From Galaxea fascicularis (lineage: Eukaryota; Cnidaria; Anthozoa; Scleractinia; Euphylliidae): a stretch of DNA of 64,000 nt. Under the pieces are notes generated by a model, which saw only the letters and a program-made list of their open reading frames with translations, made no database searches and had not been told where the DNA came from. Of the stretch, positions 20,713 through 63,962 are shown piece after piece. The DNA lies in the NCBI GenBank assembly GCA_948470475.1, contig OX419337.1:28276372-28340371 (forward strand). The letters run 5' to 3'. A program made the position numbers and the translations under genes. Position 1 is the first letter of the stretch. Every line of letters starts with the position of its first letter.

Positions 20713-22356
20713 TCAAACCAGCGTATTTCCGAACGGGCCCAAAAATCTGTGCTTCACGGAGATGTAAAACTTACTCCACGCATTGATAGTCTTTGTTGAC
20801 CAAATCCAAAATCCCGATGTTATGCCAACGATCAAGAACATCAGATACTTGACCATAAATACGGTAAAATCCGGCTTGTTATGGGCTATTGGGTGTCTAG
20901 GACAAGGCCACTCGCTAGGCTGTTCAATGCATTTTTGTTGATACACCCAACCTTCTCGCCACGAAGCTTGCCAGCTTTCACGATTTGCTTGCTCGTAAAA
21001 CAAACACCCCAGCACAGAAACGGCTGGTAGAGTGTACAAGATTGAAAACACGCCAATACGAATCATCAGTTTCTCGATTTTCTCTCTCTTGCTATAATCA
21101 TCTTTTAAAACCGATCTCACTCGAAAGAGCGACACAAATCCTGCTATTAGGAATGTAGCGCCGACAAAAAAGTACACAAACAAGGGTGCCAATACGTAAC
21201 CTCTTAGGGCACTTAGATCTGAAAGCCCAACAAAACAAACGCCGCTAAGTTCGTCTCCATCAACTTTTGTCATCAGCAAAATGGCGATCGTTTTGACCGC
21301 AGGAATCGCCCATGCTGCGAGATGAAAGAATTGTGCGTTAGCTTCGATTGCTTCGTGTCCCCATTTGAGCCCAGCTGCCAAAAACCAAGTAAGCGTCAAA
21401 ATGACCCACCAGATTGAGGAAGCCATGCTGAAGAAATACAGCAACATAAAAATTACAGTACAGCCTTCGTGTTTGGTTCCCTGAACAAGAACATTTGAGC
21501 CGTCATCGGATTCCGTACAGGATAGAGCGTCTTGAGCGGCAAAGCCGATGATAAAGGCGACAGAGACCATAAAATAACAGCCCGACAGAAAAATGATCGG
21601 TCGCTCTGGGTATCGAAATCTCCGCATATCAATTAAGAAGGTTAGAATTGTAAAGAGTGTTGAAATGCAACAAAGGATTGCCCAAATGCCGGTCCAAAGG
21701 CGAGCAATTTTCCGTTCTTTCTCGTCGAAATAAATGTTTTCGCACTTGGCAGCACAATTTTTCCGTCCGAAGAAAGTGTATTGATCATTATCAATTTTTT
21801 GATCGTCGGGACATATGAATTTCACCACGCTGGGATCAAATAGCTCCTCTGGTTCTGTTTCGTTGTCTTTAGTTTCTGGTTCTTTCGTTGGCAAGCCACG
21901 ACCACTGCCTCCTGTTGTATTCTTACCGACACAAAGTTCTTTACTAAACATCATGGGAAACTTCTCGCAGCTCAGTGATTCGGGCCACGTAAATCCAAAA
22001 CGCTTCATAAGATCCTCACATCCGTCTCTGGCGCTATTACAAAGCTCTTGACATGGCGGTACTACAGTCTCTAAAACTGTACAAATGGGAGCGTAAACCG
22101 AGCACAGAAAGAACGCCAGATATTCAGAACAACCAACTTTGACCAGAGGAAAAAACTGGTGGACTTCGAGGGCCGCTTCGTCTTGCGTTCTGTGTTTTAA
22201 CATGTTTGGATATAAAGTGGTGTTGTACTGTAAACCTAAGCATAGAGGAATTGTCACTGCTTCACACTTCTTTTGGCACAAGAAGCAGGGTAACAAGCAC
22301 ACCCCAAAAACCAGAACGGGGAGTAGAAATCGCCTGGCAGAAGCTTCTGTGAACAT
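20713..22356 (-). CDS. FZD7-like: Frizzled receptor, FZD1/2/7 subfamily (intronless, complete)
   Basis: Seven-pass Wnt receptor of the plasma membrane, 547 aa from the ATG at 22356-22354. The frame stays open upstream to a TTG at 22404 but has no further ATG, and the chosen Met directly precedes a hydrophobic signal peptide (about residues 9-27). The cysteine-rich Wnt-binding domain covers about residues 31-142 and has all ten cysteines. An acidic linker follows, then seven membrane segments from about residue 222 to 520. The TM1 region reads [19 protein letters not shown] and the TM3-4 region has [26 protein letters not shown], split here by position only; both are closest to FZD1/2/7 rather than FZD4, FZD5/8 or FZD9/10. 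The Dishevelled-binding motif KTxxxW is present as KTINAW (522-527). The protein ends in TLV, a class I PDZ ligand. The gene is a single exon, as in vertebrate FZD1/2/7. It lies head-to-head with the PFTAIRE kinase gene, about 11.7 kb away. The subfamily call is from recalled family sequences, not a tree. Confidence 0.97.
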
Positions 22357-24849
22357 CTTGCTACTTTCACAAGAAAAAGAAGAATTCAACGCACTTAGTT
22401 TCAACCACGACGCTGAATCTTTTCATCTGCGATAGCAAGCGACGACCTTTGCATGACTGAAATTGAAGTGTCAACCGAATTAGCATACCTTTGTGCACAA
22501 AATGTGATTGGCTGGCGGTGACAACAAAGGAAAATTGGAATACAAAACGCGTTGTGATTGGCTAGAATAGCATGATCTTCTAATTAAGAGTCAAACAACG
22601 TCTCCATGTTAAGGCCTCCGGATACTCGATCAGTTCCCATGAAAGCTTTTTGGTGTACTTTTTCACAGTGGGAATTTACACGCAAAAGCGGCTTACTATT
22701 GAGTTGGGTTTTGAATACACATTAATGCGCACTTTGCACAAAACACCACAAGATTAATCCGATGGATTGCTATACTTTTGATCTTTAAAGACACCCTTCG
22801 CGAAAACTAAACAAAGAAAGCCCCTTGCTGTTTTCACTTATGAATGAAGGAAGGCATCTGTGATGCGTTTCTTGTTGACGTTTTTAGAGCATGGAATTAA
22901 AAAATTGTGACATCAAACTCTGCGGGGAGTGAATTACTAGAGCAGTAGATTTGGGTTTACATTTGATAAAGCCCTTCTGTAGGATAAACAAAATCTCATG
23001 GCTTTGATAGAAGGTCCATTGTGTTTAATATAAACCAGACGCGAGCTTACTCTCATTTCCTTGGTCCTACAGAAGCCTTTGTTTGGTGTGGTGAGGTATG
23101 GGCGTTCTTCGCATTCTTGAGTGTACCGCTTTCTTCTGCCTCTTTTGTTAAGCTGTGTTGATTTATATATTTTTGATGAAAAAAGACTTTGCCGACGTCT
23201 TCTTTATTGCTTTAGCGGAATCGCCTAAAGTGTTATGTAAGGTAGATATCTCAAACCACAGTATTTAAAGCCATCCACTGAACATCGCGAAAAAAGATTA
23301 ACTGTACTAACTGGCTTTCTGTTTTACGGTAAACAGAAAGTTAGTTTTCGGTAACTCTGAGATTTGCCGCTTCCCACAATTTAGGCTAATGCACCGCGGC
23401 CGTTCATTGGAAAATTTAAATGGCGATGTTTTGAAAAACATTTCGCTTTATTCGTTTATTATAGAATTGAACAAGAACTCGAGTGTACCGAATAGAAAAA
23501 ACTAGCAGAACTAACACAATTAGGGCCAATTAGTTCTTGAGTAGAAGGCCGCTTAAATCGGCACCATTCACAATCAACGCACCGAGAATAGTATTGCGGA
23601 TTCTTACCTCTTATCAGCTTGGATACAAACTTTTCAGACGTGCGCTTGATGAAAGACGTTATAGACAACCTTTCGTTATTATTATTATTATTTTTCATGT
23701 TGCATTCACGAGCGATTACTCAACGAGATCGGCTAAATTGATTTAATTGCCGTGAGCATGATTTGAAAAGGCTACCGTATCTACAATAACTTTGAGGAAC
23801 AGTTCTCCCTTTTGTAATATTTAGACATGAAAGCTGCCGATAATAAAGCTCTAAAATGCCCCTTCAAGGTTTTTAATTTCAGAAATCAGCGAGGCTTTTG
23901 TGGCGTTTTGCCCCAGTAGCTCCTAAAAAGATAAAATGGATAAAGTTATATAACAACTGCAATCTCTTTAAATTGGCTTTTTAAAGCTGAAACGAATACA
24001 ATTAAGGCAGATTTATTTAAATCCAATTTGTTAATTTGTATTAAATGGACGCCGAGCGTGAATGGTTCGAAGGGCTGTGTACTAGAACATCATGCTTCGG
24101 CCGGAAAACAGTACTGAGGTTTCGGGATTTGATTTGTATCGGGAACTGTTTAAAAGTTGAACAGTGGCCTTACTGTACAAAGTTAGTCACCTGAAGTGAC
24201 AGATCAGTGATTTATCTCGAAAAATCCGTTGTCTTCAATAGCGTATTAGATAACAAACTGCCCATTTCCCGTGTAGAATTTCGAAGCTTCCGAAACTTTT
24301 TTTTAACGAAGTTTTAGACTATTTTTCTTTTGGTTAAAATGTTTCATCTGACATACAGGAAACCATAAGGATTTTTCAGCAATAACATAATTTTTTGTCC
24401 ATGTCGGGACACACCGAAGTGCCTCAAAATTCAAGAAATCATCAGTCACTGCTTATGCAACGGTGAATTGGAGTGTTTCTTGACAGAATAAATGCATGCG
24501 CTAATGTACTTACTTGCTGCTGAATTAGACGCACTTTAAGTTGGTAAATTGGATAAAAAAGAGCTTCGTTCTTTTGTTGTCATTAATAAGGCCCTTTAGC
24601 TCAAGTGAGAGATGTTTCCGGCTAAAGCCATGGATCTTTTCTTTCCTACAGCGACAGCTGCAATGTGTGCCTCGCGGTCCTTGTGACCAGAACCTCATTT
24701 CTCTGCACCGAATCCCTGCCAGATAAAGTATACAGATCACGAAAAGAAAGAGAATGATCACTTAAGGTGATATGTCTTCGTACTCACCTTCAAATTGTCC
24801 CAACTTATAAGATTAAAATGCATGGAGATAAGTGACCAGTGTATGTTAT

Positions 24850-25085
24850 TCACCGGCTGGGAGGTCCGTATAGGAAAAAAACTGAACCCAAGGTCTTGAG
24901 TACGGCCGCAGGCCAGGGGCCGTACAGACCCCCCAGCCAGTGAATATGGTTCAATTTTACTATTGGTACAAATTGGTATTTTCATTTCATGGTTAGAATA
25001 GTGACTTCATTATTATATATTACAATACACCAGAACAACGGAAACTACCAATTTGTACCAAAACGGTAAAATGAATTGAACCGCA
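24850..25085. repeat. Two nested inverted repeats
   Basis: ATTCACCGGCTGGGAGGTCC (24848) faces CCCCCCAGCCAGTGAAT (24945). Next to it, TTCAATTTTACTATTGGTAC faces GTACCAAAACGGTAAAATGAATTGAA near 25083 (positions given; the motif is split by mismatches). Possibly one compound MITE. Confidence 0.6.
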
Positions 25086-25574
25086 ACATATAAAATGAAT
25101 GGCGGTCTCTGATTGGCTATGCTACTCGCTGTCTATTCTGTGATAGACGTGGGGAGAATTTAGATAATTTTCTTGTTTAGTTTTGAACAACCAGTGGATT
25201 TATACTAAAACAATTAGAATATTTGCTCTCGATTTCTATCAGCGAGAGCTGATTCGGGGTAGGCCCTCATCAGCTATCTCGAGCTCGTAATCTAATTGTT
25301 AAATATATTAAGCGTTAAGAGTTAACAATAGTGTAGTAGGTCAGACAAATGGTGCTCATGATCAGAGCATCGTCTGTAAGATTTCCCATGGATCTATGTA
25401 CCTAGTGTGCTGGTTGTCGCTCTCAGAGCGAATCTAAAACTGTGGCCATTTTAAGCACGTCTTTAGTTTGCTTACATATAAACGCGCAACTGATGTGGAA
25501 TAGCATTAATTTGGATATCCGGCTTCTCAGTGGCAAAGTCTACTTCGCATAAAGGCTTTAAACAGATTATTCAT

Positions 25575-25738
25575 GGGCGTAGGCAGGATTTTTCAAAGGG
25601 GGGGGGGGGGGGCGTTCACACTGTGTCAAACACAGGGTACTCACCAGATTGTTACCTGAATATTGTAGTTTGTTTGCTTAAAAAAAAGGTTACAAAGGGG
25701 GGCTCACGGGCACCCCAGGACCCCCTCTTGCGACGCCC
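25575..25738. mobile_element. Short MITE with GGGCGTAGGCAG ends
   Basis: GGGCGTAGGCAGG at the left and a degenerate mirror TTGCGACGCCC at the right. A 14-G run and a G-rich block lie inside. This resembles a common repeat in marine invertebrate genomes; the class is unknown to me. Confidence 0.55.
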
Positions 25739-25863
25739 TTGTTATTGATGCATAACTGGTCGCTTTAGCCATTTATGAGTCGTTTGCATCTGCTGTCAAG
25801 TATTATCAATTGATTCACGAATGGAAACAAACGAGTGCTTGGTTGGCCTTCTGAGTTGGGTAC

Positions 25864-25955
25864 AACCTCGTTACCAGGGTCTTTGTTCTTCCCGTCCCGT
25901 CCTCCCTCTCGCTCCACGGGACGGGAAGAAGAGAGACCCTGGGAACGAGGTTGAG
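25864..25955. repeat. Hairpin repeat, GTTCCCAGG family, GC-rich stem
   Basis: AACCTCGTTACCAGGGTCT faces AGACCCTGGGAACGAGGTT, with an inner TCCCGTCCCGT/ACGGGACGGGA stem. This is the best hairpin of the family in the window. A single half (TAACCTCGTACCCAGGACCC) is at 27251. Confidence 0.75.
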
Positions 25956-28698
25956 TTGGGTGTCCGCTAAATCATTGGAGATTTCCGATAATAGGCGAGG
26001 GAGGAAGCGCTAAGGCAAATCTATGGATGGAAAGAAATCAAGAACAATCTGTTTTAGCTAACACAGGGATCCACTTGTTCTCAAAAATTTCAATTCTTTG
26101 CAAGAATGGGATTCCTTTTGCTGAGGTGGTTGGTCGGTAAATTCAGCGAAATTCGGTGTACACGCTACCAGGCAGTCATCTGAAATTATGGCTGATAAAT
26201 TCGATTTGAAAGATATATTTTGGTACACGTCCAGAGTTAGCAGATATTAAATCCATACAGTGTAATTCGTCACATTCCTAGGATTAAGTTATATTTTCCG
26301 GTTATGCAAACATTTTACTCATCCTCCCACACATTTCCTCCCCACCCCCGTCCCACGGGTGACAAAACGAGAACCACGTGTGACCTTTGGCGTTGGCGAC
26401 CTGACCTTCTAGATCCCAGACGTTTGTTTATTTTGTAAACAAGGAATGGTAATGCGCCTTCAATGGTTTGAAAAGGAAACGCCCGGCGACTACTCTTATC
26501 TATTAACGGAGGAAAGAGAGGTGCAGAAAAAAACAAATAATTATCAAGCACTTCTCCTTATTTGCGTTTCATTTATCTCATGTTAGACATGTAAGAATAG
26601 CCGGCCGTTATCCGGAAAAAAGGGCAACCGAGGTACGTGTGCGTGCCAACACGTCTGATAAGCTTCCCTTTCGAATGTAAAAAGGTGCTTATCTGCTCAT
26701 TCATTGTACTGACATTGCATGTATTGTGTGGGTGTAGTGTTCTCCAAAGCTCTTATTTTGTGGTTAGTATCGTTTTAGGCTACCGGATTTAATACTTAAA
26801 TTCCCTGCATGTGGGAAGATTCAGTTTAGAACTGAGATGAGAGGAGAGGAAGCGAAGAATTTCAGACAGCACTTCATTCAAATTTTCACTCTCTTCGATT
26901 CTCCGACTACAATATTGCCATGTTTGTCCCAAACAATCTATATTTTTCAAATAACTTTCGATTGATCAGAAAATAAAATGAGGAAAAGTAACTGAGTCAA
27001 AGAATTGATGTTGGGGGGGAAGCCAAAAAAAAATCATGCCAGGAGCATGGGCTCCTGTCATGCAAGGAGGCAAAACAAAACCAATCGTGCCAAGACAGAA
27101 GGGAAAGAAAAGAAAAGAAAATGGATACACCTACAAATAACTCCTGCAAAAACAATGGGGAAAATGTGAAAATATTGAAGGGCCGAAAAATAAACATGAA
27201 AATTGGAAATCCCCCACCACAACATTCATCAGTACACCGTACTCAGACAGTAACCTCGTACCCAGGACCCTCCCTTCTCTTTGTGGGTGGGGCATCGGCG
27301 GGGCGCCCAACCCCCAAAGCATGAGTAAGGTTACACAGCCCACAGCTATGACCATCATGGACAGGTTTGTCAATAATACCCTCATCAATGTGGGTTTACT
27401 GCTCAACTTTCCGGTACTTGCAGTTGCAACGAAATTAAATTCTTTTCTTTTCTACCATATTGTAAGAGCTTCTACGTTTTACTGGTGATGATGAAACACA
27501 CACAAACACACCAAACACACAACAAATTCAAACAATGGTGCATGGCATAAATTCCTAACCAGTTGATGTCCGTTAACAACTATTATGTAAATACGCAGTT
27601 GATCAATATTTGTTTTCGTCATGTTTTCAATTACGTAAAAAAGTCTGTCTCAATTCCTGATGAAATCTTGGTTGGGTAAGCTTGTGTTTTATGGTCACGC
27701 AATGAAACCACTTGTTCTTGCCCAAAAGAAAGTCTTTGTCAGGAGCCACCGTTATCATAGCCGGCAACTCACTCTGCCGACTGACTTTTAGGATGACTTT
27801 CCACGTCCAAAGTTTCATATTCTTTGTGTTGTTTTGGCTTCCACCTTAAGTGAGTGGATTTTACTTCACGGTGGTTTACATCAAAAGTGTTTTCCGGGTC
27901 ACGGGTGAGCACAATCAATATCGGCTTCACATTGGGTCCACAATAACGTACAAAAGAAATAATGAACTTTAAATTATCATATCAAGTTGTTAGTTTCCTG
28001 CGGTTTCTTTTGCGTTAATGTGCATCCAAAGTGATGGACTCCACAGCACAGTTTTCGTGTGCTGAGCTCGTTTGTACGCGAGCGTATCTAAGTTATGGTC
28101 ATGTATTACGTAACACCGTTGGCTTGGAGAGCATGGGCCAAAACTAAACCTTCATAACTTGGATGTTGAGTCACTCAAAATAAAACACACATCTTTGGAG
28201 TTTATTAAATCTATGAGCCGTGTGTTGGAAAGAGGAAAAGAAGACTGCGGCGGGAAGTTAGCACTTTTTATTAACTTTGTTGTATAAGGATTTGGAAAAA
28301 GATTGTCTGCTTTCATGTACGGTAAGGTTATTGAAAAATATCAACGGGATTATTTTATTGCACAACCATTGTCTTTTGTAATAAAAAAAACATATACCTC
28401 AGTCTTTCACAAGTGCAGATCTGCCAGTCTGTTGGAAAATTTATATTACAATAGGCGTATCCAGCGAGAGTAACTTAAATAGACAAATTCGCCTTCAATG
28501 AATTTTTTATAGCCGGCTACACGAAAACAACACGGAATTTTCAGTGACGCACTTTGTAGAGAAAATTTAAATTACTTAACGTTTAGTGTCTAAGTATCTC
28601 AAGCTCTTGTTTTTTGTTCAATCTCGCACAAAACACTTATCTTTTTCTTCTTTTTTATCCTGTACTAGTGTAATTTAATCGCCTCTGTTTAAGTTAAA

Positions 28699-28813
28699 AT
28701 TTAAAAATTAAACGAGGCTTACCTGTAAGGTGAAGTTTGATTGTAATTCTACGAGTTATTGGTCAGGAGCGGAGAAGTCACGTGAGATAGCGCGCGGCAA
28801 GCAAGCAGTCAGT
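28699..28813 (-). repeat. DIRS inverted terminal repeat, 3' end of the element
   Basis: The 40-bp inner part (28774-28813) is an exact reverse complement of 33137-33176. The outer part is only loosely related to the other end. The outer sequence reappears in inverted form in the internal complementary region. Confidence 0.9.
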
Positions 28814-28894
28814 CTTTAAAGGTTTTACGGCTCATGGGCATTCCCATAAATGAAGGGTAGGGAGTGAGAAGAGTACATCACATGCGGTGGGCGA

Positions 28895-29021
28895 GTGACT
28901 TCTCCGCTCCTGACCAATAACTCGTAGAATTACAATCAAACTTCACCTTACAGGTAAGCCTCGTTTAATTTTTAAATTCTACTTCGTCATTGGTCAAAGT
29001 CGCTACGAAGTCACGTGAGAT
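28895..29021 (-). repeat. DIRS internal complementary region
   Basis: 28895 to about 28978 is the reverse complement of the outer left terminus (28699-28780). From about 28970 to 29021 it is the same-strand copy of the reverse complement of the right terminus. The two meet at a shared TTTAAATT. This is the template arrangement proposed for DIRS replication. Confidence 0.92.
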
Positions 29022-29093
29022 TTTAAAGCAAATGCCCATGAGCATCAATGCAATATAGAATACTCTTGTGGTAAAGCAAAACTTTTATTAACA

Positions 29094-30077
29094 TTAACGC
29101 TGAGCTTTCAAGAGGTCAACCCCAAAGTTAGCTGAATCAGTAGTGCTGATTGGCTTGTCATAGAACTTACTGAAAGTTCCAGCATTGGCCCATCCAGCTG
29201 CATCCATGATTGTCTTCACGGAAACATTGGCAGCTTTGGCAGCCGACGTGGAAGCTGCCCGTGTGCTGTGTGCACCATACTTGTTAATGTCAATACCAGC
29301 GTTCTCTAGAACCTTTTTTAGCCAACGAGCAATTGTATCGATGGATACAGGCTTAAAAGGTTTACAGAAACTTAATAACAACTGGGTATAGCTCCCTCTG
29401 GTTAACTTGGTACGATTAACATATTCTGTAAGAACTGTAACAATGCATAACTTTTTATCTTCTTCAAAGGAGCGAAACTCCAAACGTCCCAGGTGTTTAC
29501 CTGGTTTAGAGGTTTTAAGTAATTTCTGTATGTAGAATATACAGTTTTTATCCGTAAGTGTCATGTGAGAAACCTCTAGGGAATGTATCGTTTGGCATCT
29601 TTGTCCTGATAGGAGTGCAAGCAACATGGTTGTCTTGAATGTCAACAGCTGTAAACTTAGGCTCTCCAGAGGGTGGAGCGTTTTTAGATAAGACAAGACT
29701 GTAGAGACATCCCAGATTTCTTGGTAACGAGGTAAGGATGGTCGGGTGGTGAAAACACCTTTAAGGAACCTTGTCACCAGGGGATGGTTGCCAAATGTGC
29801 CACCCTCAGTGGGAAGGATGACAGTGGACAATGCAGAGCGGGCGCTATTGATTGCACTGTAGGAAAGTTTCTTTTGGTACATGTCACCCAAGAAGTTTAT
29901 TCCATCAATTACAGATGCTGAAACAGTATTAATTTCCTGTTCACGACAGTACAGTTCCCATCGTTGTAAGTATGATTTGTATTGTTTTTGGGTTCCCGGC
30001 TTCCACGCTTGCAGGATGACGTCTGTAGCTGTTGTTGAAAGGCCCTTGCTTGTGAGGTGTTCCCGGACAAATGGCAC
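29094..30077 (-). CDS. DIRS element tyrosine recombinase
   Basis: About 327 aa counted from a GTG at 30077; the frame is open back to about 30157 with no ATG. It replaces an integrase and inserts the circular DNA copy by strand exchange. The catalytic residues of the phage-integrase family are visible: Arg in LSGQRCQTIHSLE (about 167), the box HSTR (270-273), Trp in AGWANAGTF (about 296) and the nucleophile Tyr in FSKFY (306). The N-terminal part looks like the SAM-like core-binding domain (KQYKSYLQRWELYC). It is the last gene of the element and overlaps the end of the RT frame. The stop at 29094 is about 70 nt from the internal complementary region. How it is translated without an ATG is unclear. 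Confidence 0.93.
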   Translation of the reverse strand: MPFVREHLTSKGLSTTATDVILQAWKPGTQKQYKSYLQRWELYCREQEINTVSASVIDGINFLGDMYQKKLSYSAINSARSALSTVILPTEGGTFGNHPLVTRFLKGVFTTRPSLPRYQEIWDVSTVLSYLKTLHPLESLSLQLLTFKTTMLLALLSGQRCQTIHSLEVSHMTLTDKNCIFYIQKLLKTSKPGKHLGRLEFRSFEEDKKLCIVTVLTEYVNRTKLTRGSYTQLLLSFCKPFKPVSIDTIARWLKKVLENAGIDINKYGAHSTRAASTSAAKAANVSVKTIMDAAGWANAGTFSKFYDKPISTTDSANFGVDLLKAQR

Positions 30078-31975
30078 AGAAGAAGTTTTATTGTCTTGTG
30101 AAGTGGGTGGAGAAGGGCTGGGTTCGATGGTAGGTGGAGAGTGTCCTTTTTCCTAGGGAGAATAAGAGGTGGTGCAATAAGCATGTTAGCAAGGTATGGC
30201 CACCATGGTTGAGTAGGCCAGTGAGGTACAACAAGAAGGCCCGTTGCTTTGTCTTCTTGCACTTTTTGCAGCACTTTCTGAATTATACAGAATGGGGGAA
30301 AAGCATAAAAGGAAAATTTGGTCCACTGTATATGAAAGGCATTGACAGCATACGACCCAGGGTCGGGTTGATAGGAAACATATCTTTTACATTTGTAATT
30401 TAGCCGAGATGCGAAAAGGTCAATGTCCGGCTGAAATTTTATCTCAGCTATCGCCTTCTGAAACACAACGGGATTGAGGCTCCATTCAGTCTCCCGTCGT
30501 GTTTTGCGTGACTCAGCATCTGCAGCAGTATTGTTTATTCCTGGGATGTGGGAGGCAGTAAGCCAGATGTTATGTGTTATACACCACTCCCAGATATCAA
30601 TAACTAGCCGATTAATAGTGTTTGAGTGGCACGTTCCCATTTGATTTAAGCATGCCACTGCTGTCGTGTTATCAATAAGGACAGTGATTGATTTCCCTGA
30701 TATTATATCCGAAAAGGATTTTAACCCTAGGAGAACTGCTTTGGTCTCTAGGTAGTTGATGTGATTTTCTGCTTCATCTGCAGTCCAAGACCCACCTGTG
30801 GGAGTACCCTGGCATGTGCAGCCCCACCCTGTTTTTGAGGCATCAGTAGTCATAGTTACTTTTGGTGTATAATGACTGATTGGGTTGAAAGCTGTCTCAA
30901 TTGATTCAATCCACCATCGAAGGTCACTGATCGCGTCTGGTGATAGGGACATAGGGCTCTCAAAGTTACCCCTACACTGCTTTAGGGCCTGGGTTTTATC
31001 AATCTCAATCCACCGATAATGGAGGGGCCCATACATTACACCAGGAAAGCTGGATGTGAGAAGACCTAAGACCTGTGCTACTTGTCTTATTGAAGGTAGA
31101 AATGAATCCACAAGTTGTTTACAGGCATTTTTAACTCTACATGCCTTGTCAGGCGTAAGAGAAATTCTCATCAAGATAGAGTCCAAAATGAAACCCAGAA
31201 ATACCAATCGTTGGGTGGGAACCAAAACAGATTTTTCGGGATGCACTACAAGACCCAGGTTGTCAAACAGTGTAACTGTATCAATGATATTTTGGACACA
31301 GTGATCATGAGTAGCAGCTTGCAAATATGAATCATCAATGTAGGCAACTGATAAGTGGCCCATTTGTCTGAGTGTGGAGTATACAGGCTTAAGAAGCTTG
31401 GTGAATTTTCTGGGGCAAAACGCTAGTCCATTAGGAAAGCATGTAAACTCGTACAAATCGCCCCGCCAGGAGAATTTTAGGTATTTCCGGTCCTGTTTAG
31501 CAATAGAAACGGAGTAGTATGCATCCTTTAAATCAATAGATGCCATATAGCATCCAGGTGTCATCATCGCAACAGCAGTCCAAATCGTATCCATTTTAAA
31601 ATGGTGGTATACTACGTACTGATTCAGCGATTTCAAGTTCAGAATCATTCGGTACGAGCCATCTTTTTTCGGCCGCAAAAATACAGATGAGATAAAGTCA
31701 CCCTTCTCGTGTTTCGACTGCTGAATTACGCCTTTTGCGAGCAGTGACAAAATCTCGCAATCAATAAATTCTGCTTCCTCCTGGGACCATGTTGGTTGGT
31801 ATGGAGGTTTAATTTGTAGAGGAGTTTGGGTAAACTCGATGCTTTGCCCAGCTACGGTTTCCAGAATTTCTGGATCCGAAGTAAGGATACGCCATTGCTC
31901 AATGTGGTCAGTAAGCTGACCAGCCTGAAAATGTTTGGCCTTAAACCTGTAATACTCCACAAGACCTGGTAGCAA
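29909..31975 (-). CDS. DIRS element reverse transcriptase / RNase H
   Basis: About 688 aa. The RT domain lies in the first third: SIDLKDAYYSV near residue 145, FPNGLAFCPRKF, and the catalytic box YIDD near 212. RNase H follows at about 370-510 with the four acidic positions visible: TTDASKTGWG, ETKAVLLG, LIDNTTAV and NNTAADAE. A third region (DLFASRLN, then YAFPPF, then PHWPTQPWWP) resembles the segment after RNase H in DIRS elements that has been described as Dam methylase-like; a canonical DPPY motif is not seen. The first codon listed is TTG, and the frame is open further upstream into gag with no nearby ATG. Translation therefore probably depends on -1 frameshifting, reinitiation or a non-AUG start. 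The 3' end overlaps the recombinase frame by about 170 nt. Confidence 0.93.
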   Translation of the reverse strand: MLPGLVEYYRFKAKHFQAGQLTDHIEQWRILTSDPEILETVAGQSIEFTQTPLQIKPPYQPTWSQEEAEFIDCEILSLLAKGVIQQSKHEKGDFISSVFLRPKKDGSYRMILNLKSLNQYVVYHHFKMDTIWTAVAMMTPGCYMASIDLKDAYYSVSIAKQDRKYLKFSWRGDLYEFTCFPNGLAFCPRKFTKLLKPVYSTLRQMGHLSVAYIDDSYLQAATHDHCVQNIIDTVTLFDNLGLVVHPEKSVLVPTQRLVFLGFILDSILMRISLTPDKACRVKNACKQLVDSFLPSIRQVAQVLGLLTSSFPGVMYGPLHYRWIEIDKTQALKQCRGNFESPMSLSPDAISDLRWWIESIETAFNPISHYTPKVTMTTDASKTGWGCTCQGTPTGGSWTADEAENHINYLETKAVLLGLKSFSDIISGKSITVLIDNTTAVACLNQMGTCHSNTINRLVIDIWEWCITHNIWLTASHIPGINNTAADAESRKTRRETEWSLNPVVFQKAIAEIKFQPDIDLFASRLNYKCKRYVSYQPDPGSYAVNAFHIQWTKFSFYAFPPFCIIQKVLQKVQEDKATGLLVVPHWPTQPWWPYLANMLIAPPLILPRKKDTLHLPSNPALLHPLHKTIKLLLCHLSGNTSQARAFQQQLQTSSCKRGSREPKNNTNHTYNDGNCTVVNRKLILFQHL

Positions 31976-32025
31976 TGAACGATATTCGCTTACCTTGAGT
32001 GCTGGTAATACATCGACAAAGGGAT

Positions 32026-33084
32026 TTATTTCCTTTGTTGTTGGTCTGCACGTTTCGTGCGGGGATAAAATGGCTTGCCCTTGTGCTGCCGACTCTGCGT
32101 CGGCGGCGCTCGTGATAAAAAAGGCCTGTTGTGTTGTTTATTCTGGTTGAAGTTTTGACCATAATAGGCACGCCGCGGAGGATGAGAGGAACTTGTTGTG
32201 CTGCTGATCTTGTTAGTGGCTCGGATGTGGGTCAACTGTGTCTGCAGTTCGTCGCCAAATAGGAGCTCTGTCAAAGGCACGTTCGCCGAGCAAAGGTCAC
32301 CGTAGTCCTTATGAAGGTTTGGTTTGATGTCTTCACGACGAAGCTGAGAAAGCTCAAAACTGGCATGGCCTAGCAAGGCTATAGCATCTGTAGTCATTAC
32401 TACAAGCTCGTTAAATTCCTCGGCAAAGGTGCTATCAACTTTGGCTTTCAATGTTAGCAGCATTTCTGTGGATTTCACAGCGATGTGACCAACCTTAGTC
32501 AGATTGGTCTGAAGGCGGGAAAACTTGAGATCTTTCCCTCGTGCTGGCCTTGGAAGCTTGCTCCAAATCTCTTCGTTCACTTTAGGCACAACGATCTTTG
32601 CACAGTTGACAGGGCGATGGTATTTATCGACCTTCGCTTTCAGCTGGTCGTCGCTTAGTTTGTGTAGCCAGCTTTTATTAGCGACTGTTGCGAGCTTTTC
32701 TGAGACCGGTGCAGCGGTTCGCTCGGCCTCGTCTAGTGATTGAGCAATATCGTCAAGCACGTCGTCCTGACTCTCAGCCGTGTTCAGTGGCTTATCTTGG
32801 GCTGATTGGCCCTCAGTAAGGAGGTCATTTACCTCGGTAGAAACACCTGATTCAGGCGAACTACGTAGCCTTTTAGGAGCAGATTCTGCCTCTTTACCGT
32901 CGTGGTCGTCCACGTTGCGGAGACGTTTGAGCGAGTCACTCATTGCGGCCATATTCGAGTTTAAACTGGCCAACACCGGAGTCAACATTCGCAGGAGGTT
33001 GTCCTGTTGAGCATCCATTCGATCGTCTGAAATTCCATCAGCGAGGAGGGCGGTTTCGTCTTCTAGGGAAATATTAACGTTCAT
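32026..33084 (-). CDS. DIRS element ORF1, gag-like protein
   Basis: 352 aa from a true ATG at 33084, about 130 nt inside the element's 5' end. The N-terminal third is acidic and polar with a predicted helical stretch. The middle has the repeated Leu/Lys pattern typical of nucleocapsid-type DIRS ORF1 proteins. The C-terminus from about residue 300 is rich in Arg, Gln, Asn and Pro and could bind nucleic acid. No zinc knuckle was seen. Its role as gag is inferred from position and composition, not from a recognised domain. The RT frame is open beneath its last 80 or more bases in the -1 frame, so gag and RT could be joined by a frameshift. Confidence 0.8.
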   Translation of the reverse strand: MNVNISLEDETALLADGISDDRMDAQQDNLLRMLTPVLASLNSNMAAMSDSLKRLRNVDDHDGKEAESAPKRLRSSPESGVSTEVNDLLTEGQSAQDKPLNTAESQDDVLDDIAQSLDEAERTAAPVSEKLATVANKSWLHKLSDDQLKAKVDKYHRPVNCAKIVVPKVNEEIWSKLPRPARGKDLKFSRLQTNLTKVGHIAVKSTEMLLTLKAKVDSTFAEEFNELVVMTTDAIALLGHASFELSQLRREDIKPNLHKDYGDLCSANVPLTELLFGDELQTQLTHIRATNKISSTTSSSHPPRRAYYGQNFNQNKQHNRPFLSRAPPTQSRQHKGKPFYPRTKRADQQQRK

Positions 33085-33136
33085 TTTATCTCGGAGGCCA
33101 ACTTTCGTCGGCCTGACTGCTTGAGAACCGAACGCA

Positions 33137-33213
33137 ACTGACTGCTTGCTTGCCGCGCGCTATCTCACGTGACTTCGTAGCGACTTTGACCAATGACGAA
33201 GTAGAATTTAAAA
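33137..33213 (-). repeat. DIRS inverted terminal repeat, 5' end of the element
   Basis: Inner 40 bp identical in inverted orientation to 28774-28813. The outer part (ATTGGTCAAAGTCGC read on the minus strand) is specific to this end and is copied once at 28970-29021. It probably carries the element's promoter; no core promoter motif was recognised. Confidence 0.9.
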
Positions 33214-33235
33214 TGTATACCAGCACTAAAAAGAA

Positions 33236-50548: not shown

Positions 50549-50553
50549 GGTGG

Positions 50554-50600: not shown

Positions 50601-50606
<6 letters not shown>

Positions 50607-55639: not shown

Positions 55640-55643
55640 TAAC

Positions 55644-55679
<36 letters not shown>

Positions 55680-56317: not shown

Positions 56318-59300
56318 GATTTCTTTTCTCTGGAGGATCTTCACTTGCCTCCCATTGGATCAAACTACAGAGCACCATCAACAATGGAGGTATCTGAGTA
56401 CCAAACTGGACCAAGATACGAGAACAAGCCATTTACACTACCTAAGGTGGAAAACACAAAACAACATGCTATACATGTACCAAAAACTTATACCACAAGG
56501 AAAGGAGCATTGCTTTTGTATGCTGAGGACTTTTTCCTTCCTGGCTCTCCTAAGCCAAGAAAGAAACGGCGCAAAATTAAAAAGCAAACTTCATTAAAGC
56601 TTAGGACAATGAATGATTTGAGGAACTATATCTTGGACTACAAGAATGGGGTATGTATGTATGTAATGATACCATTGAAATTGTTGGCCATTCCATGTTG
56701 GTTCATCAGCGTGATCAGTGATGCCCTAGAAAGATCATGATTATTAAGGAAAATCAAATGTCTGGACCATACAATAAATAAATACGTTTTGTGATTGTGT
56801 TTTAAGGAAGTATTATGACTGTCTTTGTGGTTAAAATTTCTCCCATTGTGATCATTAATCTTTTGATTTTTTATTTATTGTAAGTATGGTGAGCCCCTCC
56901 ATTTTGCAACACTAGTTGTCCCTATTTATCAATCAGGTATTGATCCATTTGTACTGTTTTCTATTGATAATAGGGTGATCCTCTCTTCCTTGCATTGCTT
57001 GAGAAACGACTTAGTGGTTACAGAGATTCTGTCAGACCGGGCTTCTCACCAAAGCGTTATATCGCTACTCTTGGAAATTCATTGCAAGGGGAGATGTGGA
57101 ATCGACTTGCAGCAACAGGATCTATCAAAGACCCCTCCCTACTTGGCTACAACCCCAAACTAGCTCCATTGCATGGTGATGCAGCTATGAGTACTCTTTA
57201 TCCAAATAAACCTCAGCCGTACAGTACCATGTCTCTGCCTCCACTCTCGCCGTCAAGCTCAATGTTTGATAGTTCATTTCATTTTTACAAGAATGGAATG
57301 TCAACTGGAGCTGCATCAATGATTTCTTTGAGCAGTGAAACTGAGGAGTACGCTCCATCGTCAAGAGCTTTGAGTCCTGCAGAATCTTTGAGTAATAGGC
57401 TTCCTGAAGTGGAGTTCCTTCCACAAAGAAAAGACCCATATGCAAAGTTGAATGCTAGGGAGAAAGAAGACTTGTTGTCCCAGCTTTTACTTCAGAAAAC
57501 ATTAAGCTCAGATCTCTCAGATCTTCAGGGATGGGTGACAAACTACCCAGACCACGGGCGTGAGGTTGAACAGGATCCTGCTTCCATGATTACTTTACAG
57601 AAGAGTAAATCCAAGCATAGAGGAAGTCTGAAGTCAGGCTCTTTAACATCAATACCACGTCTACCCCCCATTCAATCAGCAGGGGCTAGACCAATAACAC
57701 CAGTGGAATTAACAGAGGAGAGGTCATCAGCACAGACATTAGCTGATGTTAAAGCTGATGAACAAAAGGAGTATTATTCAAGTAAAGAGGGAGAAAGAGA
57801 CAACATTCTTGACCCGGGTTCCATACAATTAGACCTTAGTTCATTTGATGAAAGTTCTGCATTACCCAATCAACATGTCTTAGGCAATGACAGCGTTGTT
57901 GCTTCTGAAGAAACTGCCGATGACATTAAAGAGGGAGAAAGTGAACAAGACGATTCAACTGGAAAGATGAATCAGTCTCTTTCAAGACACTCAAGTGAAG
58001 AAGGTATCTGCTTTCTGAAATGGAGTTCTTTGTATGTTCTGAGAAGTTCTAAGTATGATGCTAGCATACTCTAGACAGGGGTTTCCCAATAGTTTGGAAG
58101 TAGCTGTCAGAGTTAGCCAAAGTTGTCGGTTATCTTGCTTATAAGCATCTACATAATGTCTATACAGGCCTGTAGCAAGGATTACATATATAACAGAACT
58201 ACCCCCCCCCCCCAAAGAAAAATATGGGTGGGGCTTACCCTCCTCTCCTATCCCTGATAAGAGTCTGCTATAGTAAGAAAATATGCCACATTACATCAAA
58301 TACAGCAGCACACTTTTGAGAACCACATACTAATGATTTTGAGTAACTTGTGTTAATTTGAACCATCATTATCACTTGAAAATAAGACACCATGTCAAAG
58401 TGCCCCCAAAAAAGGATCAAAGCCAGACTTTTGGCATAGGATGTGGGGGAGTCTATTTGCAGTACCTTCCATAAGGTTCCATAAGGTATTTCGTCAGAAA
58501 GATTAATCTTGTTTAAGTGTAAGATGAGGCAAGTGCTGCTGGTCTGTGGCTCAGATCAATCTCCACATTTAACATTAACTGGGTATCCTTTGTCTCCAAC
58601 ATGAAATAATTTTGAATCAAGTGTATTTTGTTGTAGTTAACAACCTGTGGCTGTCGACCTAGGCTTACCCGACCCCTGTTTAAAGATTTATGCTTCTGTA
58701 TCCTTTACTTAAAGGTGTATTCTATTGTATTGTAATTTCAGCAGTGGAGCCTTTGGATGTTGCCAGAACTGATGTTTCAGTGTTTGAACCTGAAGAGGCC
58801 TCCAGTAGTGAAGATTCCATTGCAGATCAAGGTGTAACACAGGGTGATGCTGCTGTAGCTCTTGATGACATAATTTTCAATGATGATACTGCTCAGGGTG
58901 ACATTAAGGACACAACGCAAGATAGTGAAATGGGAGATAATGCCGAGGACCTTGCAACAGAAGGTGAAGAAACTTTATCAAGAGCAGAAGGTGGTGTAAC
59001 AGGCATGGAAATAGGTAGTAACAAAGGTGCAGCACAAGCTGAAAAAGAACCATTAATGACAGAAGAAGCTGATGTAGAACCTGGAGAGTTGAGATCAGAT
59101 GACGAGGATGAAGGAATTGGTCTCGATGGAGAGGAACTTGATGACAATAGTAGGCATGAAGGAGAAGAGGAATCAAAAGCTGATGGGACAGTGATAGCGG
59201 AGGAAGGTAATCACTTATAGTATATTGCTTTTGTTAATAAAGTTTATAACTCTTCCCTTCACAACAGTTCACACGATTAATTGTAACCATGCTGCTGAAA

Positions 59301-62300
59301 GTGAAGATGCATGTAATGACAACCAATCTTACACAATTGAGTCCAGTCGCTAAAAAAACCCCAGAGAAAGTGAGCTTGCAGAGTTATTTTTTAAAGAAGG
59401 AAAAACAGTCTCATTTGTTTAAATGCCAGTTTTTGTGTTTTAATGCAAAGCTTCCTCAGCAAGGATTCTCACTCCTTGTTTTCATCAGGTGCACAGATGC
59501 CAGAGCTAGTGGAACCACCTCCTGCTATCAGCTTTGAGGAACTGCAAGGTGCTGCCCGGTCTGTTGCCAATAGGGTCCTGAGTCGCCCACAGTCTGGAAT
59601 GGTGTTCATGGAAGATGCAAGAACTGCTATTGCAATGTGGGCTGATCGTTTGACAAACCTTTTGGGACCACCCCAGCAAGGTAAGGAGATTGCTTTTGCA
59701 GGGCTGAATTTTTAAGATTATAAGTACAAATTATTCGTACTTATAATCTTAAAAAATCTGGCCTGAAAATGCAATGAACAGCACAACTCAATGTTTGGTG
59801 TGACTGCTGAATAAAAGCACTGAGAACACATTTATAGGGGTCAATCTCCATCTGAAGTGAATATAATTCACAAATTTCAGTGAGATGATGACCGGTTTAC
59901 AACTGTCTATTGTTTATTTTTCAAATTCCAGGCACCTTCCCACCATTATTATATCTCTCAGTATGTATGCTGTGATTGGTCAGTTTTGTGGACAGTATTC
60001 CACTGTACAGCCTGCCAAATTTGAAAGTTTCCTTTTCCGCATGCCTGATTAACCTCAGAAATATAATAAAATATCTTACTAACCTCATTTTTTGGTCTGT
60101 ACTGTAAGTTATGGATATTACTTTTTTTTTCCTGTTGATATATGGCCCATGCACTTTGCACTTGGGCCATAAGTGAACAGGAAAAAACTTGGTCCGTAGC
60201 TTACAGTATGAACCTCGAACTCGGTCAGTAAGATTTCTGACTGTATTATTTTGTGTATATTTTATTTTAGGTCTAGACTAGCCCTATATCGTTTGTGGCT
60301 CACTGCAGCTCACAAGGCGTCTTTTGTGCAGTCAATTTAATTTGATTCCTAAATGTCTTCCAAGTGTTTCTTAACCTGAGGGATTCTTAATCGATTATGC
60401 CCGTCTTAATTCATGTTAAGTTAATTCAAAGTAAGGTACACAACACCATTATCTGTAGGTAAAATTGCAGTAAACTTAGTTTTGCAAGAAAAACGAACTT
60501 AACCTTCCTACTTTTTTCCTGACAAAGATCTCTGAAATGGCTTCCCCTCACTTAAACGACCATCGGTGGTTTTCCATCTCTAAAAGGAGGGAGATTTGTT
60601 ATTCATTTTCTCTGGTATTGTTTGTTGTAGATGCACGTGTCAGCTCAGCCAAGCAGAGACCAGACCCGGCTGCTCAGGGAGGCTTAAGCCGTCCCACAAG
60701 GCAACGCAAAGTGAGCCGCTCGGCGGGTCCTTCAGTGGCTGCTTTGAGGAAAGCTCTGTTCATTTCCGGAGGTGAGTGTTGGATCAATAAACTTCCATTC
60801 ATTTGAGAAACATATCGTATCCTGTTCAATGGATTGGATACGACTGACTCTTCTTATGGCCCTTTCAAGTTACGACTTGACTTGAGAGCTGAAAAGAATG
60901 ATTGGTTGTACCGCCTGAAACACAGCGGAAATGTGGAAAGGCATGGTCAAAATTTGTTTATAATGGAGCTTATTAGAGTTGTTTTCTAAAAATGAATACG
61001 TTATACTTCAGTGGTTAGCATTTTTCATTCCAAGCGTTGGAAGTAACTTTTAAGGTCGACAACCTCGAATCATGTTTATACCCCATTTTGAACCCCTTTT
61101 GGTTTCCCAACGTTCTTAGGAGAAATACCGGAAATTGAAGCCTTAAAGAACTTGCCACCACTTCCGGAGAGCTTCGGTAAGCCAGTGCGGCCACACCCTC
61201 CCAGTGGAGTATCCAGTGGGCATGCGCGACGTGAAGCACGTGAGTAAAATGTGTTTGTTTCAGTTTATGTGCATCTTTCTGATGATGTGTTACTGAGTTT
61301 GGGTTAGTTGTAGTTTTTCATCGTCAATCAAGTCGCAGTTAGGCAATGTACGTATTGAATTTGGAGACGTAAAAATATTATGTTTCTGCATGGAATATAT
61401 TGCTACTAAAACGTTCCTTACAACATGGGAGTGGAATGTAAAAGGGAATTTAATCATCGACAGGAACTTCTTGTTTTTGGATGTATGGAAAAAAGGAATG
61501 ATACTCCTTGTCACAACAGAATAGTAGTTTTGGAACCCATGCAAAAGGTAATCCTCTACTCCAGAACTTGACCAGAAAATCCCCCCACCCACAATTTCAA
61601 CACCCACAAAAGGCCTTTAAACTTTCACGTCATTAATTCCCTGTCTTGCTCTCTCCTCCCCTCCCTCAATAATGTCCCTGGGTATCGCCAACCGTTTGAT
61701 CAACGTAGCTTTCTTTTCCAGTTAAGGATGGATCAATGTCAACCAAAGGATCTGCTTCTTCGGGTGCTGCTCGCTCAATTCCCTGGGAGAGAATCTCCAG
61801 CACTGATTTCCAAGCTGACGTTTTTAGTTACGCGTCAATGGAGCCGACTTTACAGCGTTTGCAAGCGGACGAAATCGCTGATGATGAGTCAGACGGGGAC
61901 GGTGAACAATTCAGAACAGCTTTGGATGCGGTCGTGACCGAAGTCAAACCGGACTATGTCGAGGCAAGTTCAAGAATGGCGATCTCATCTCCAAAAAAGG
62001 ATCAGCAGCCGTTTAAGTTTCCTCGTCCAGCACCTACCAAACCACCTGCTGGCATACAAAATAAACAGACCACAGGACAAGCCAAACCGAAAACCAAACC
62101 GACACCTCCAAAGAAAGCACCGCCCGCGAAAAAGAAGGGTGGGAAGAAGCCAGCAAAACAAGCTAAACCAAGCAAACCCGCTAAAGCTACTAAGGGGAAA
62201 ACGGGGGCGCCGAAGAGGGAAGAACAACCGGAGAAAGTGGAGGAAGTCAAGGAAGCGGTCGTTGAAGAAGTGCAAGAGGAAACAACTGAAGTTGCGAGAG

Positions 62301-63962
62301 TCGATTCGGAAACAGGCGAACGTGAGCTAGAAATATTGGACAGTACTGTCATATCCTCTAATGTTTCCAGAGATACATCGGCGAGAATATCTTCCAAAGC
62401 CTCTGACGAAGTGACTGAAATCAAGTCTGTTGAACCTCATGAATCTCCCGTATCTTCAGTTCCCGAGATACCTCGTATTGTCCCGAAACCGCCCGAACCA
62501 CAATCTGTACCGGAAGTTGCATCGGAAGCTGAACCACGAGTAGAGCAACCTTCTCCAGCGCAAGAACAGAAACAACCTCAGGAATCCAGAGCCGCCAGGA
62601 GGGCCGCAGAACGGGCAGCTGCCGCAGAACGAAGACGGCAAGAGGTGGAGCGCAAGAGGAGGGAGAGGGAAGAGGCAAAGAGGAGAGCTCTTGAAGAGGA
62701 AGCTAGATTGGAGCAGCTCAGACTAGAGGCAGAAGAAGACATGAAGAGGAGAGAAGAGGAACGAAGGTTAGAGTACTGCCTCGAGAAATGAAGTAATAAC
62801 GCACGGAAGACGTCAAAACATGTTAACGACACCAGTCACGCTATTCGCCTGCGCTTCGTAGGACACTTGTACCTTACCATGTTTTGACGTCATCTGTGCG
62901 TTATCAGGGAACACACGCACGGCCAAAACGGAATTTGTTTTTAAGTAGCGTTCATTTGAGGGTGACAGTTACCGTGTCGGATTTTTTTTTGTTTCAGTCT
63001 GATTAGTATTCCAAGGCGACGTTTGATCTTAGCTTCGTTGTTTGTTCACCAGTTCAACCCTGACATCAACATGCATATTCTCCTAACTCTTCTTCTCATA
63101 TTTCTTATAGTGCTCAGAGAAGTTGGTTAAACATGTTTGATGATCATTCCCCTTATTCTCATAACCTGTTTGTGAGCTAAAATGGTGTTTCTGTAAGGAG
63201 AAAGTAGGCTTTGGGCACTGTTAGGGCTTAAAGGGTCAATAAGGAAGACAGACAACTATTACGACGGTAACTTTAACTTGCATTGCCAAATTTAAACGGT
63301 GGAGTTTTTTGTTTTCGTTCGTTAGATTGAGACGCCAAGAAAAAGAAGAAGCGAAACACCGAGAACGTGAAGAGGAGCTGGAGAGAGAACGGCAGGCCAA
63401 AGCGAAAGCGGAAAAGGAAAAACGCGCGCGGGAGGAGTGGAAAAAACGACAATTACAAGTGATGGCGCACAGGAAACTGGAAGAAGAAATGAAAAGGGAG
63501 CAGGAAAAAATCGAGGCCGAGTTAGAGGCTGCGAGACTCAGGGAGGAAGAAGAGAGGATAAAAGCCATGGAGGAATCTGAGAGGATCGCTTTCTTGGAAA
63601 AGATGCGTCAGGAAGAGGAAGAGTTGAGGCAGAGACTAGAGGAGCAGAAACGGAGAGATGAAGAGGAAAAGCGAATACGGGAAGAAGAAAAAAGACAGAG
63701 AGATGAGGCACTGGCTTTACTACGGCAAAAGCAACTACAGAGACATTTATTTATTGCAGGGCTTTTAAAGGAAAGTCAATATCTTGCTTTGGGTCAGAGA
63801 CTTACTAAAGCATTCACGTTTTCTTATTTTGATCTCCTTCCATGGAATCATTTGCAACATTTAATCCCTCCCCCCTCCCCTGTACGTGACTTGATTGCTT
63901 CGGTAAAGGACGCCATTCCTCCGACTATAGAGGAAGAAGATGAGAATATAGACGAAGATTAA
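56318..63962 (+). CDS. KIAA2012-like: KIAA2012 homologue, charged coiled-coil protein (5' incomplete)
   Basis: Exons supported by frame and GT-AG sites: 56318-56650, 56974-58003, 58742-59206, 59489-59680, 60631-60771, 61120-61239, 61722-62766, 63326-63962 (stop TAA), giving 1320 aa. The 5' exon with the start codon was not found. It should lie upstream of 56318, where the frame is open into a good acceptor. The N-terminal part has [17 protein letters not shown] and then a segment with GFSPKRYI and SIKDPSLL. These match, in order, the N-terminal region of vertebrate KIAA2012 as I recall it. The middle is acidic and low complexity (exon 3). Exon 7 starts with a Lys/Pro/Ala-rich stretch. The end of exon 7 and exon 8 form a long Glu/Arg/Lys helix. 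The C-terminus (LLKESQYL, then FSYFDLLPW) matches the conserved KIAA2012 tail. Human KIAA2012 is about 1180 aa and its function is unknown; I assign none. Confidence 0.85.
59712..59754. repeat. Short perfect hairpin (KIAA2012-like intron 4)
   Basis: TTTTTAAGATTATAAGTAC faces GTACTTATAATCTTAAAAA across a 9-nt loop, immediately after exon 59489-59680. Confidence 0.8.
59935..60232 (+). mobile_element. Unbroken copy of the repeat at 37.8-38.6 kb (KIAA2012-like intron 4)
   Basis: Collinear with 37787-37894 plus 38439-38633. At the position of the SINE insertion it reads GATTAACCTCAGAAATATAA without interruption. Confidence 0.85.
62790..62906. mobile_element. MITE in the last intron of the KIAA2012-like gene
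   Basis: TAATAACGCACGGAAGACGTC at its left end (21 bp, positions 62793-62813) is mirrored by GACGTCATCTGTGCGTTATC on the right, with CAAAACATG/CATGTTTTG inside. The intron lies within the coiled-coil coding region. Confidence 0.75.
63055..63240. repeat. Dispersed repeat, copy B
   Basis: ACATCAACATGCATATTCTC, TTGATGATCATTCC and TATTCTCATAACCTGTTTG, ending in TTAGGGCTTAAAGGGTCAA. Same family and orientation as 705-890. It ends about 85 bp before the last exon. Confidence 0.7.

What the first reader, a model, noticed from the sequence alone, without database searches (positions are those of the whole stretch)
20713..63962. Frizzled - PFTAIRE kinase - KIAA2012 block looks like ancient microsynteny tied to Wnt signalling
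The window holds one FZD1/2/7-type Frizzled, one CDK14/15-type kinase and one KIAA2012 homologue as consecutive genes. From memory, human CDK15, FZD7 and KIAA2012 are neighbours at 2q33, and CDK14 and FZD1 are neighbours at 7q21. Finding the same trio in what appears to be a cnidarian suggests a block retained since before the cnidarian-bilaterian split and duplicated in vertebrates. CDK14/cyclin Y phosphorylates LRP6, the Frizzled co-receptor, so two members act in the same pathway. A shared regulatory landscape could be what holds them together.
Basis: partly seen in the sequence, partly recalled or inferred. Interest (0 to 1): 0.88.

Follow-up and report, generated by a model that had tools for sequence, protein, structure and literature searches.

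The report
Ancient Wnt receptor–kinase gene block
In what is likely a stony coral's genome, two Wnt-receptor genes, the gene for the kinase type known to prime their co-receptor, and a gene of the KIAA2012 (cilium protein) family sit next to each other within 68 kb; parts of the same set are neighbours in humans, so the neighbourhood likely predates the split of corals and bilaterian animals and would be a test case for why some genes stay together so long.

Summary
The window carries a one-exon FZD1/2/7-type Frizzled, an 18-exon CDK14/15 (PFTAIRE) kinase and an 8-exon KIAA2012 homologue, each apparently single copy in the 416.6-Mb genome; trees and motifs support the orthologies. Papers (passages) place CDK15, FZD7 and KIAA2012 together, CDK14 beside FZD1, CCNYL1 beside FZD5 and CCNY near FZD8. 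Cyclin Y is CDK14's partner, so these four Frizzleds each lie beside or near a part of that kinase. Coral cyclin Y is on the same chromosome, 2.46 Mb away. Chromosome-level linkage appears in 3 of 4 informative species (Nematostella, a hemichordate, a sea urchin); a crinoid has Frizzled and KIAA2012 on different scaffolds. Order differs from human. What holds the block is not shown: TCF-like sites are not enriched, and a DIRS-like retrotransposon lies between Frizzled and kinase. KIAA2012, reported in motile cilia, looks like a bystander.

The parts
20713..22356 (-). FZD1/2/7-type Frizzled, single exon, ATG 22356 to stop 20713
   Evidence: ATG position counted by hand
34037..50463 (+). CDK14/15-type PFTAIRE kinase, 18 exons: 34037-34127, 34276-34347, 34718-34782, 36550-36735, 43083-43177, 44127-44206, 45042-45136, 45238-45300, 45748-45809, 46241-46302, 46845-46905, 46996-47055, 47624-47717, 48179-48242, 48572-48620, 48759-48807, 49907-49997, 50411-50463
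   Evidence: last exon read by eye from the letters printed
56318..63962 (+). KIAA2012 homologue (DUF4670), exons 56318-56650, 56974-58003, 58742-59206, 59489-59680, 60631-60771, 61120-61239, 61722-62766, 63326-63962 (stop); start codon or an upstream exon not settled
1..20712 (.). spacer between the stop of FZD5/8 (C3:28274429, 1.9 kb before window base 1) and the stop of FZD1/2/7; the two Frizzleds are tail to tail
   Evidence: eight of its longer frames match no Pfam family
22357..34036 (.). 11.7-kb head-to-head spacer between the start codons of FZD1/2/7 and the kinase; holds the DIRS-like element
29094..33159 (-). DIRS-like retrotransposon (reverse transcriptase and tyrosine recombinase frames) inside the Frizzled-kinase spacer; the name DIRS is recalled from the domain set

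Best explanation
The window's FZD1/2/7-type Frizzled, CDK14/15-type kinase and KIAA2012 homologue are neighbours, with a FZD5/8-type Frizzled just outside the window, and this four-gene block was likely inherited from the common ancestor of cnidarians and bilaterians and likely kept together by regulatory DNA of the Frizzleds lying among the neighbouring genes. Shown: the four genes, their classes, their apparent single-copy status, spacing and strands in this genome. Shown from papers: in vertebrates the CDK15/FZD7/KIAA2012 and CDK14/FZD1 neighbourhoods, and the separate CCNYL1/FZD5 and CCNY/FZD8 neighbourhoods. Inferred: one ancestral block that the vertebrate genome duplications copied and that later fell apart into receptor-plus-kinase and receptor-plus-cyclin pieces. 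Inferred and untested: the holding force. I think it most likely that the Frizzleds are the developmentally controlled target genes, while the kinase and the cilium gene are neighbours through which their control elements run, so that content is kept while order and strand drift. The kinase product would still serve the same pathway, by priming LRP6 at G2/M with cyclin Y.
For: Four apparently single-copy genes in 67.5 kb. Orthology: solved-structure ranking of all four full-length coral Frizzleds, Frizzled tree with the FZD1/2/7 clade at 100/99, kinase tree at 100/99 and PFTAIRE in 120 of the 120 homologues listed, KIAA2012 alignment of 11 sequences with an invariant N-terminal and a conserved C-terminal block. 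Vertebrate neighbourhoods, from passages: PMC6455049, PMC10137620, PMC6834745, PMC4686014, PMC11203018, PMC5054932; a mole-rat record in which a CDK15-like kinase and FZD7 are fused into one model, as neighbouring genes would give. For a regulatory cause: KIAA2012 is placed in motile cilia and has no known function; FZD8 is contacted by an enhancer (HARE5) for which CCNY and GJD4 were among the other candidate targets; Nematostella Fz5/8 has elaborate spatial control.
Against: Order is not conserved (strand neither, human strands being recalled). The spacers are short, and one holds a retrotransposon, so spacing is not protected. TCF-like sites are not enriched (5 found, 6.47 expected). HARE5 does not lie in CCNY but about 400 kb from it. 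No conserved non-coding sequence, chromatin contact or expression data could be tested. The crinoid Anneissia has its listed Frizzled and KIAA2012 proteins on contigs of different length. Slow rearrangement alone would also explain the data.
Confidence: 0.5

Rival explanations
1. Neutral retention: the block is ancient, but nothing holds it; cnidarian and vertebrate genomes rearrange slowly inside chromosomes, and some neighbour sets survive by luck.
For: Same-chromosome linkage in Nematostella, Glandiceps and Diadema is what chromosome-scale conservation alone predicts; order has drifted; KIAA2012 has no known pathway link; a retrotransposon sits in one spacer; no TCF-site enrichment.
Against: Under free shuffling within the chromosome, three given genes within 70 kb of a fourth has probability 4e-8; parts of the same set are neighbours again in vertebrates, where CDK-FZD pairs survive on two human chromosomes.
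Confidence: 0.33
2. Functional cluster: the receptor and the LRP6-priming kinase (and, ancestrally, its cyclin) stay together because they are used and expressed together.
For: Cyclin Y-CDK14 phosphorylates LRP6 at S1490 at G2/M (PMC8473786); C. elegans CDK-14 binds Dishevelled and acts in a Frizzled-dependent Wnt response (PMC8496196); CCNYL1 lies beside FZD5 and CCNY near FZD8 in vertebrates; coral cyclin Y is on the same chromosome.
Against: In the coral cyclin Y is 2.46 Mb away with other neighbours; in the C. elegans response neither cyclin Y nor kinase activity was needed; the block includes a cilium gene; Nematostella Fz5/8 is aboral while Wnts are oral, so simple co-expression of the block is unlikely; LRP5/6 was not mapped.
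Confidence: 0.12
3. Chance or artefact: the genes are misidentified, or brought together recently or by misassembly.
For: No independent assembly or read data of this genome was examined; adjacency was not seen directly in a second cnidarian.
Against: Orthology tests; the same three genes on one Nematostella contig length; vertebrate neighbourhoods in papers.
Confidence: 0.03

Closest known systems
Conserved ancient metazoan microsynteny blocks (gene neighbourhoods shared by cnidarians and bilaterians; general notion recalled, no catalogue was read)
   Same: Unrelated single-copy genes kept as neighbours in a cnidarian and in vertebrates
   Different: Here order differs, and the set ties two receptors of one pathway to a kinase that primes their co-receptor; whether existing catalogues already list this set was not checked
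Genomic regulatory blocks (developmental target gene plus bystander genes; concept recalled)
   Same: A developmental receptor gene with a functionally unrelated neighbour (KIAA2012) kept alongside; long-range control is reported for FZD8
   Different: No conserved non-coding elements or contacts have been shown here, and coral distances are tens of kb, not hundreds
Vertebrate CDK15/FZD7/KIAA2012 and CDK14/FZD1 neighbourhoods
   Same: Orthologous genes
   Different: Coral keeps one copy, adds FZD5/8 beside FZD1/2/7, and has FZD1/2/7 outside the kinase-KIAA2012 pair rather than between
Vertebrate KLF7-CCNYL1-FZD5-PLEKHM3 neighbourhood (PMC4686014, passages read)
   Same: A FZD5/8-class receptor beside a component of the CDK14 kinase complex
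   Different: In the coral, cyclin Y is 2.46 Mb from FZD5/8

Membership tests
FZD1/2/7 Frizzled class | Fz cysteine-rich domain plus Frizzled seven-helix domain | tested here: met
FZD1/2/7 Frizzled class | closer to FZD1/2/7 than to other classes, with separate genes for other classes in the genome | tested here: met
   tree (no non-coral outgroups of the other classes, long branches)
FZD5/8 Frizzled class (gene just outside the window) | best solved relative FZD5, ahead of FZD1/7 | tested here: met
   678 against 547 bits
CDK14/15 (PFTAIRE) kinase | PFTAIRE motif instead of PCTAIRE or PSTAIRE | tested here: met
CDK14/15 (PFTAIRE) kinase | groups with CDK14/15 apart from CDK16, CDK5 and CDK3 | tested here: met
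   100/99
CDK14/15 (PFTAIRE) kinase | binds cyclin Y and phosphorylates LRP5/6 | not testable with these tools
   reported for CDK14 (PMC8473786, passages)
KIAA2012 | DUF4670 and conserved N- and C-terminal blocks shared with named KIAA2012 proteins | tested here: met
   no row was named as human KIAA2012
Ancient microsynteny block | same neighbours in cnidarian and vertebrate | tested here: met
   for this genome; papers for human
Ancient microsynteny block | neighbourhood kept in further cnidarians and invertebrate bilaterians | tested here: inconclusive
Genomic regulatory block | conserved non-coding elements or enhancer contacts across the bystander genes | not tested
   no second animal genome available; only a TCF-site count was made, without enrichment

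The most novel reading that the evidence does not exclude
The last common ancestor of cnidarians and bilaterians carried one Wnt-reception locus: two Frizzleds (5/8 and 1/2/7), the PFTAIRE kinase and its cyclin Y, with KIAA2012 as bystander. This coral keeps receptors and kinase together with the cyclin on the same chromosome; vertebrates duplicated the locus and split it into FZD-CDK (FZD1-CDK14, FZD7-CDK15) and FZD-cyclin (FZD5-CCNYL1, FZD8-CCNY) halves, so that four human Frizzleds still lie beside or near a piece of the kinase that primes their co-receptor.
Probability: 0.4. Interest if true: 0.82.

Novelty: new member of a known kind. Interest (0 to 1): 0.6.

Why it matters
If the block is ancient, it is a compact test case for why gene neighbourhoods last for hundreds of millions of years: it holds two receptors, a kinase of the same pathway and an unrelated cilium gene, so shared regulation, shared function and plain inertia make different predictions. 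I saw no paper that points out the extra pattern, that FZD1, FZD5, FZD7 and FZD8 lie beside or near CDK14, CCNYL1, CDK15 and CCNY: searches returned nothing, and none of the 20 rows listed (of 29) held the word synteny; the single pieces are in papers on other subjects.

Tried and rejected
Considered and set aside: (1) cyclin Y directly beside FZD5/8 in the coral, as in vertebrates: no match in the window, 60 kb upstream or 60 kb downstream; it lies 2.46 Mb away with a TPR-like gene and a receptor-like frame as neighbours (these two identified by eye). (2) Wnt-responsive sites: SCTTTGAWS 5 found, 6.47 expected. (3) SUMO1, KLF or CREB near the block, as near the human loci: no match in the loci held then nor around cyclin Y. 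(4) Further genes in the flanks: 9 of the 90 frames listed were profile-searched; one is sulfotransferase-like, 51 kb upstream of FZD5/8, four match retroelement or SAP families and four match nothing (one of the nine lies on C4). Ten spacer frames match nothing. Spliced genes may have been missed. (5) A second animal locus through the genome collection: none, as expected for a prokaryote collection. (6) Mapping CREB and PAR3 genes to test the wider chromosome: not completed. (7) Literature: searches gave no paper; one search gave three (one read by passages: nothing on this block; two seen in listing only); one search gave 29 with at least three of four terms, 20 listed, none of these with 'synteny'; one search gave one, seen in listing only. 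A weakness: the kinase query lacked exons 1-3, 15, 16 and 18 of the later model and ended in one residue read into an intron.
Full report
What is there. The window lies at C3:28276372-28340371 of a 416.6-Mb genome in 170 contigs. The nearest named relatives listed are stony corals: kinase 80% identical to Oculina, Frizzled 78% to Acropora, KIAA2012 homologue 66% to Montipora; that the genome is a stony coral's is inferred from these. The Frizzled is one open frame, 20713-22422 on the minus strand, with its first ATG counted by hand at 22356, and with Fz and Frizzled domains. The kinase has 18 exons between 34037 and 50463 on the plus strand, with AG before and GT after each internal exon; exon 18 was read by eye from letters printed. 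The protein is identical to database protein P0001 at 459 of 463 positions. The KIAA2012 homologue has 8 exons from 56318 to the stop at 63962; its start is not settled. Ten of the longer frames in the spacers match no Pfam family; small or spliced genes there are not excluded.

The missed fourth gene. A search of the whole genome for the Frizzled domain gave eight matches: four full-length frames and four exon pieces at C3:22.61-22.62 Mb that may belong to Smoothened (not followed up). One full-length frame lies at C3:28272798-28274429, plus strand, 1.9 kb before the window. It is FZD5/8-type: FZD5 678 bits, FZD1 547. So the order is FZD5/8 (+), FZD1/2/7 (-), CDK14/15 (+), KIAA2012 (+) in 67.5 kb. 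The other two Frizzleds lie 30 kb apart on contig C4; one ranks FZD4 first (555 against 427 bits), the other is best matched in its ligand-binding domain by FZD10 (149.5 bits; no full-length FZD9/10 structure was listed) though FZD4 leads among full-length structures. The four full-length coral Frizzleds therefore lie in two close pairs.

Orthology. The window's Frizzled scores FZD7 693 and FZD1 677 bits against FZD5 471. In a tree of 19 rows (4 coral Frizzleds and 15 of the 120 proteins listed), it groups with cnidarian Frizzleds, and these with bilaterian FZD1/2/7 at 100/99, apart from the other three coral genes. Those three have long branches, and no other-class outgroups from other animals were included. 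The kinase has the PFTAIRE motif, as do 120 of the 120 homologues listed (7985 were found), where human CDK16 has PCTAIRE. In a tree of 20 rows (15 of the 120 proteins, one part of a protein, three human kinases and the window) it falls with CDK14/15 at 100/99, within cnidarians. The KIAA2012 search listed 54 proteins; names with KIAA2012 are shown for Montipora, Patiria and Hyla. An alignment of the window protein with 10 of the 54 shows an invariant N-terminal block and a conserved C-terminal block.

Copy number. The KIAA2012 domain matches once in the genome. Kinase exon matches to P0001 reach 94% identity at the window; elsewhere the highest is 71%, over 34 residues. The tool warns that such counts are lower bounds. 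As a yardstick, random placement of three given genes within 70 kb of a fourth has probability 4e-11, or 4e-8 within this chromosome.

Other animals. No second animal genome was available, so I used the contig length printed for each database protein; equal lengths within a species are read as one contig, which is an inference. The informative species are those listed with contig lengths for at least two of the three families. Nematostella kinase, Frizzled and KIAA2012 homologue are all on a contig of 22,031,953 bases; Glandiceps kinase and Frizzled on 21,295,702; Diadema setosum kinase and KIAA2012 homologue on 30,926,319; Anneissia Frizzled and KIAA2012 homologue on 2,134,876 and 1,048,692. 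That is 3 of 4 in favour, at chromosome scale only. Only the best 120 rows of two searches were visible, and the species were matched by eye. A mole-rat record (Fukomys, P0177) joins a CDK15-like kinase and FZD7 in one predicted protein, as neighbouring genes would give.

Vertebrate neighbourhoods from papers (passages only). CDK15, FZD7 and KIAA2012 are consecutive in a list of human bone-density genes that appears to run in chromosome order (PMC6455049). CDK14 and FZD1 are consecutive in a 7q21.13 duplication (PMC10137620) and in a chromosome 7 list (PMC6834745). KLF7, CCNYL1, FZD5 and PLEKHM3 keep one order in human, mouse, zebrafish and carp (PMC4686014). CCNY, GJD4 and FZD8 follow each other in a table of a 10p deletion (PMC11203018) and are described around the FZD8 enhancer HARE5 (PMC5054932). 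FZD7 and FZD5 are both placed on sheep chromosome 2 (PMC9140571). The human strands, and the closeness of FZD5 and FZD7 in human, are recalled. In human order, FZD7 lies between kinase and KIAA2012; in the coral, FZD1/2/7 lies outside that pair, so content is kept but not order.

The cyclin. Cyclin Y and CDK14 phosphorylate LRP6 at G2/M (PMC8473786). Landing that close has probability 0.012 genome-wide, and 0.12 once on the chromosome. The coral thus supports chromosome linkage, not adjacency, for the cyclin; the ancestral five-gene locus is an inference from vertebrate CCNYL1-FZD5 and CCNY-FZD8 plus coral FZD5/8-FZD1/2/7-CDK14/15.

How it might work. KIAA2012 is placed in the cilium of motile-ciliated human cells and has no known function (PMC12772120), so its presence speaks for a bystander. 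Nematostella Fz5/8 is restricted to the aboral side by beta-catenin and Six3/6 while Wnts are oral (PMC4874479), so simple co-expression of the block is unlikely. C. elegans CDK-14 binds Dishevelled and acts with a Frizzled, but there neither kinase activity nor cyclin Y was needed (PMC8496196). I therefore prefer regulatory entanglement around the Frizzleds, with neutral retention close behind. Against it: no enrichment of TCF-like sites, short spacers, and a DIRS-like element in the Frizzled-kinase spacer. No direct test was possible.

Novelty. Ancient neighbourhoods are a known kind. Searches combining Frizzled and CDK14, or FZD1 and CDK14, with synteny terms gave no paper; a looser search gave 29 papers, none of the 20 listed containing the word synteny; searches for cnidarian Frizzled linkage gave three papers (one read by passages, with nothing on this block) and one (listing only). 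The library holds open-licence papers only, and published lists of conserved pairs were not checked.

Noticed in passing
C4:11377869-11413710 (loci L003, L004): The FZD4-type and FZD9/10-type Frizzleds lie about 30 kb apart on the same strand, so the four full-length coral Frizzleds form two close pairs, which may be a relic of tandem duplication.
   Followed up: partly
window 29094-33159: DIRS-like retrotransposon with three long overlapping frames (two with reverse transcriptase or tyrosine recombinase matches, one without a match) ending 0.9 kb before the kinase start codon.
   Followed up: partly
L013:257-4168: A further retroelement-like stretch upstream of FZD5/8 with a SAP-domain frame and a reverse transcriptase frame.
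   Followed up: partly
window 16483-16881 (+) and 36211-36582 (-): Two stretches whose frames read similar proline- and serine-rich peptides, probably copies of one repeat.
   Followed up: no
window 10777-10851 and 11072-11146: 75-base direct repeat, 97% identical, 295 bases apart.
   Followed up: no
G000 C3:25800001-25830000 (L039-L041): Cyclin Y gene, probably with an MGN start, beside a TPR-like gene and a receptor-like frame (both judged by eye).
   Followed up: partly
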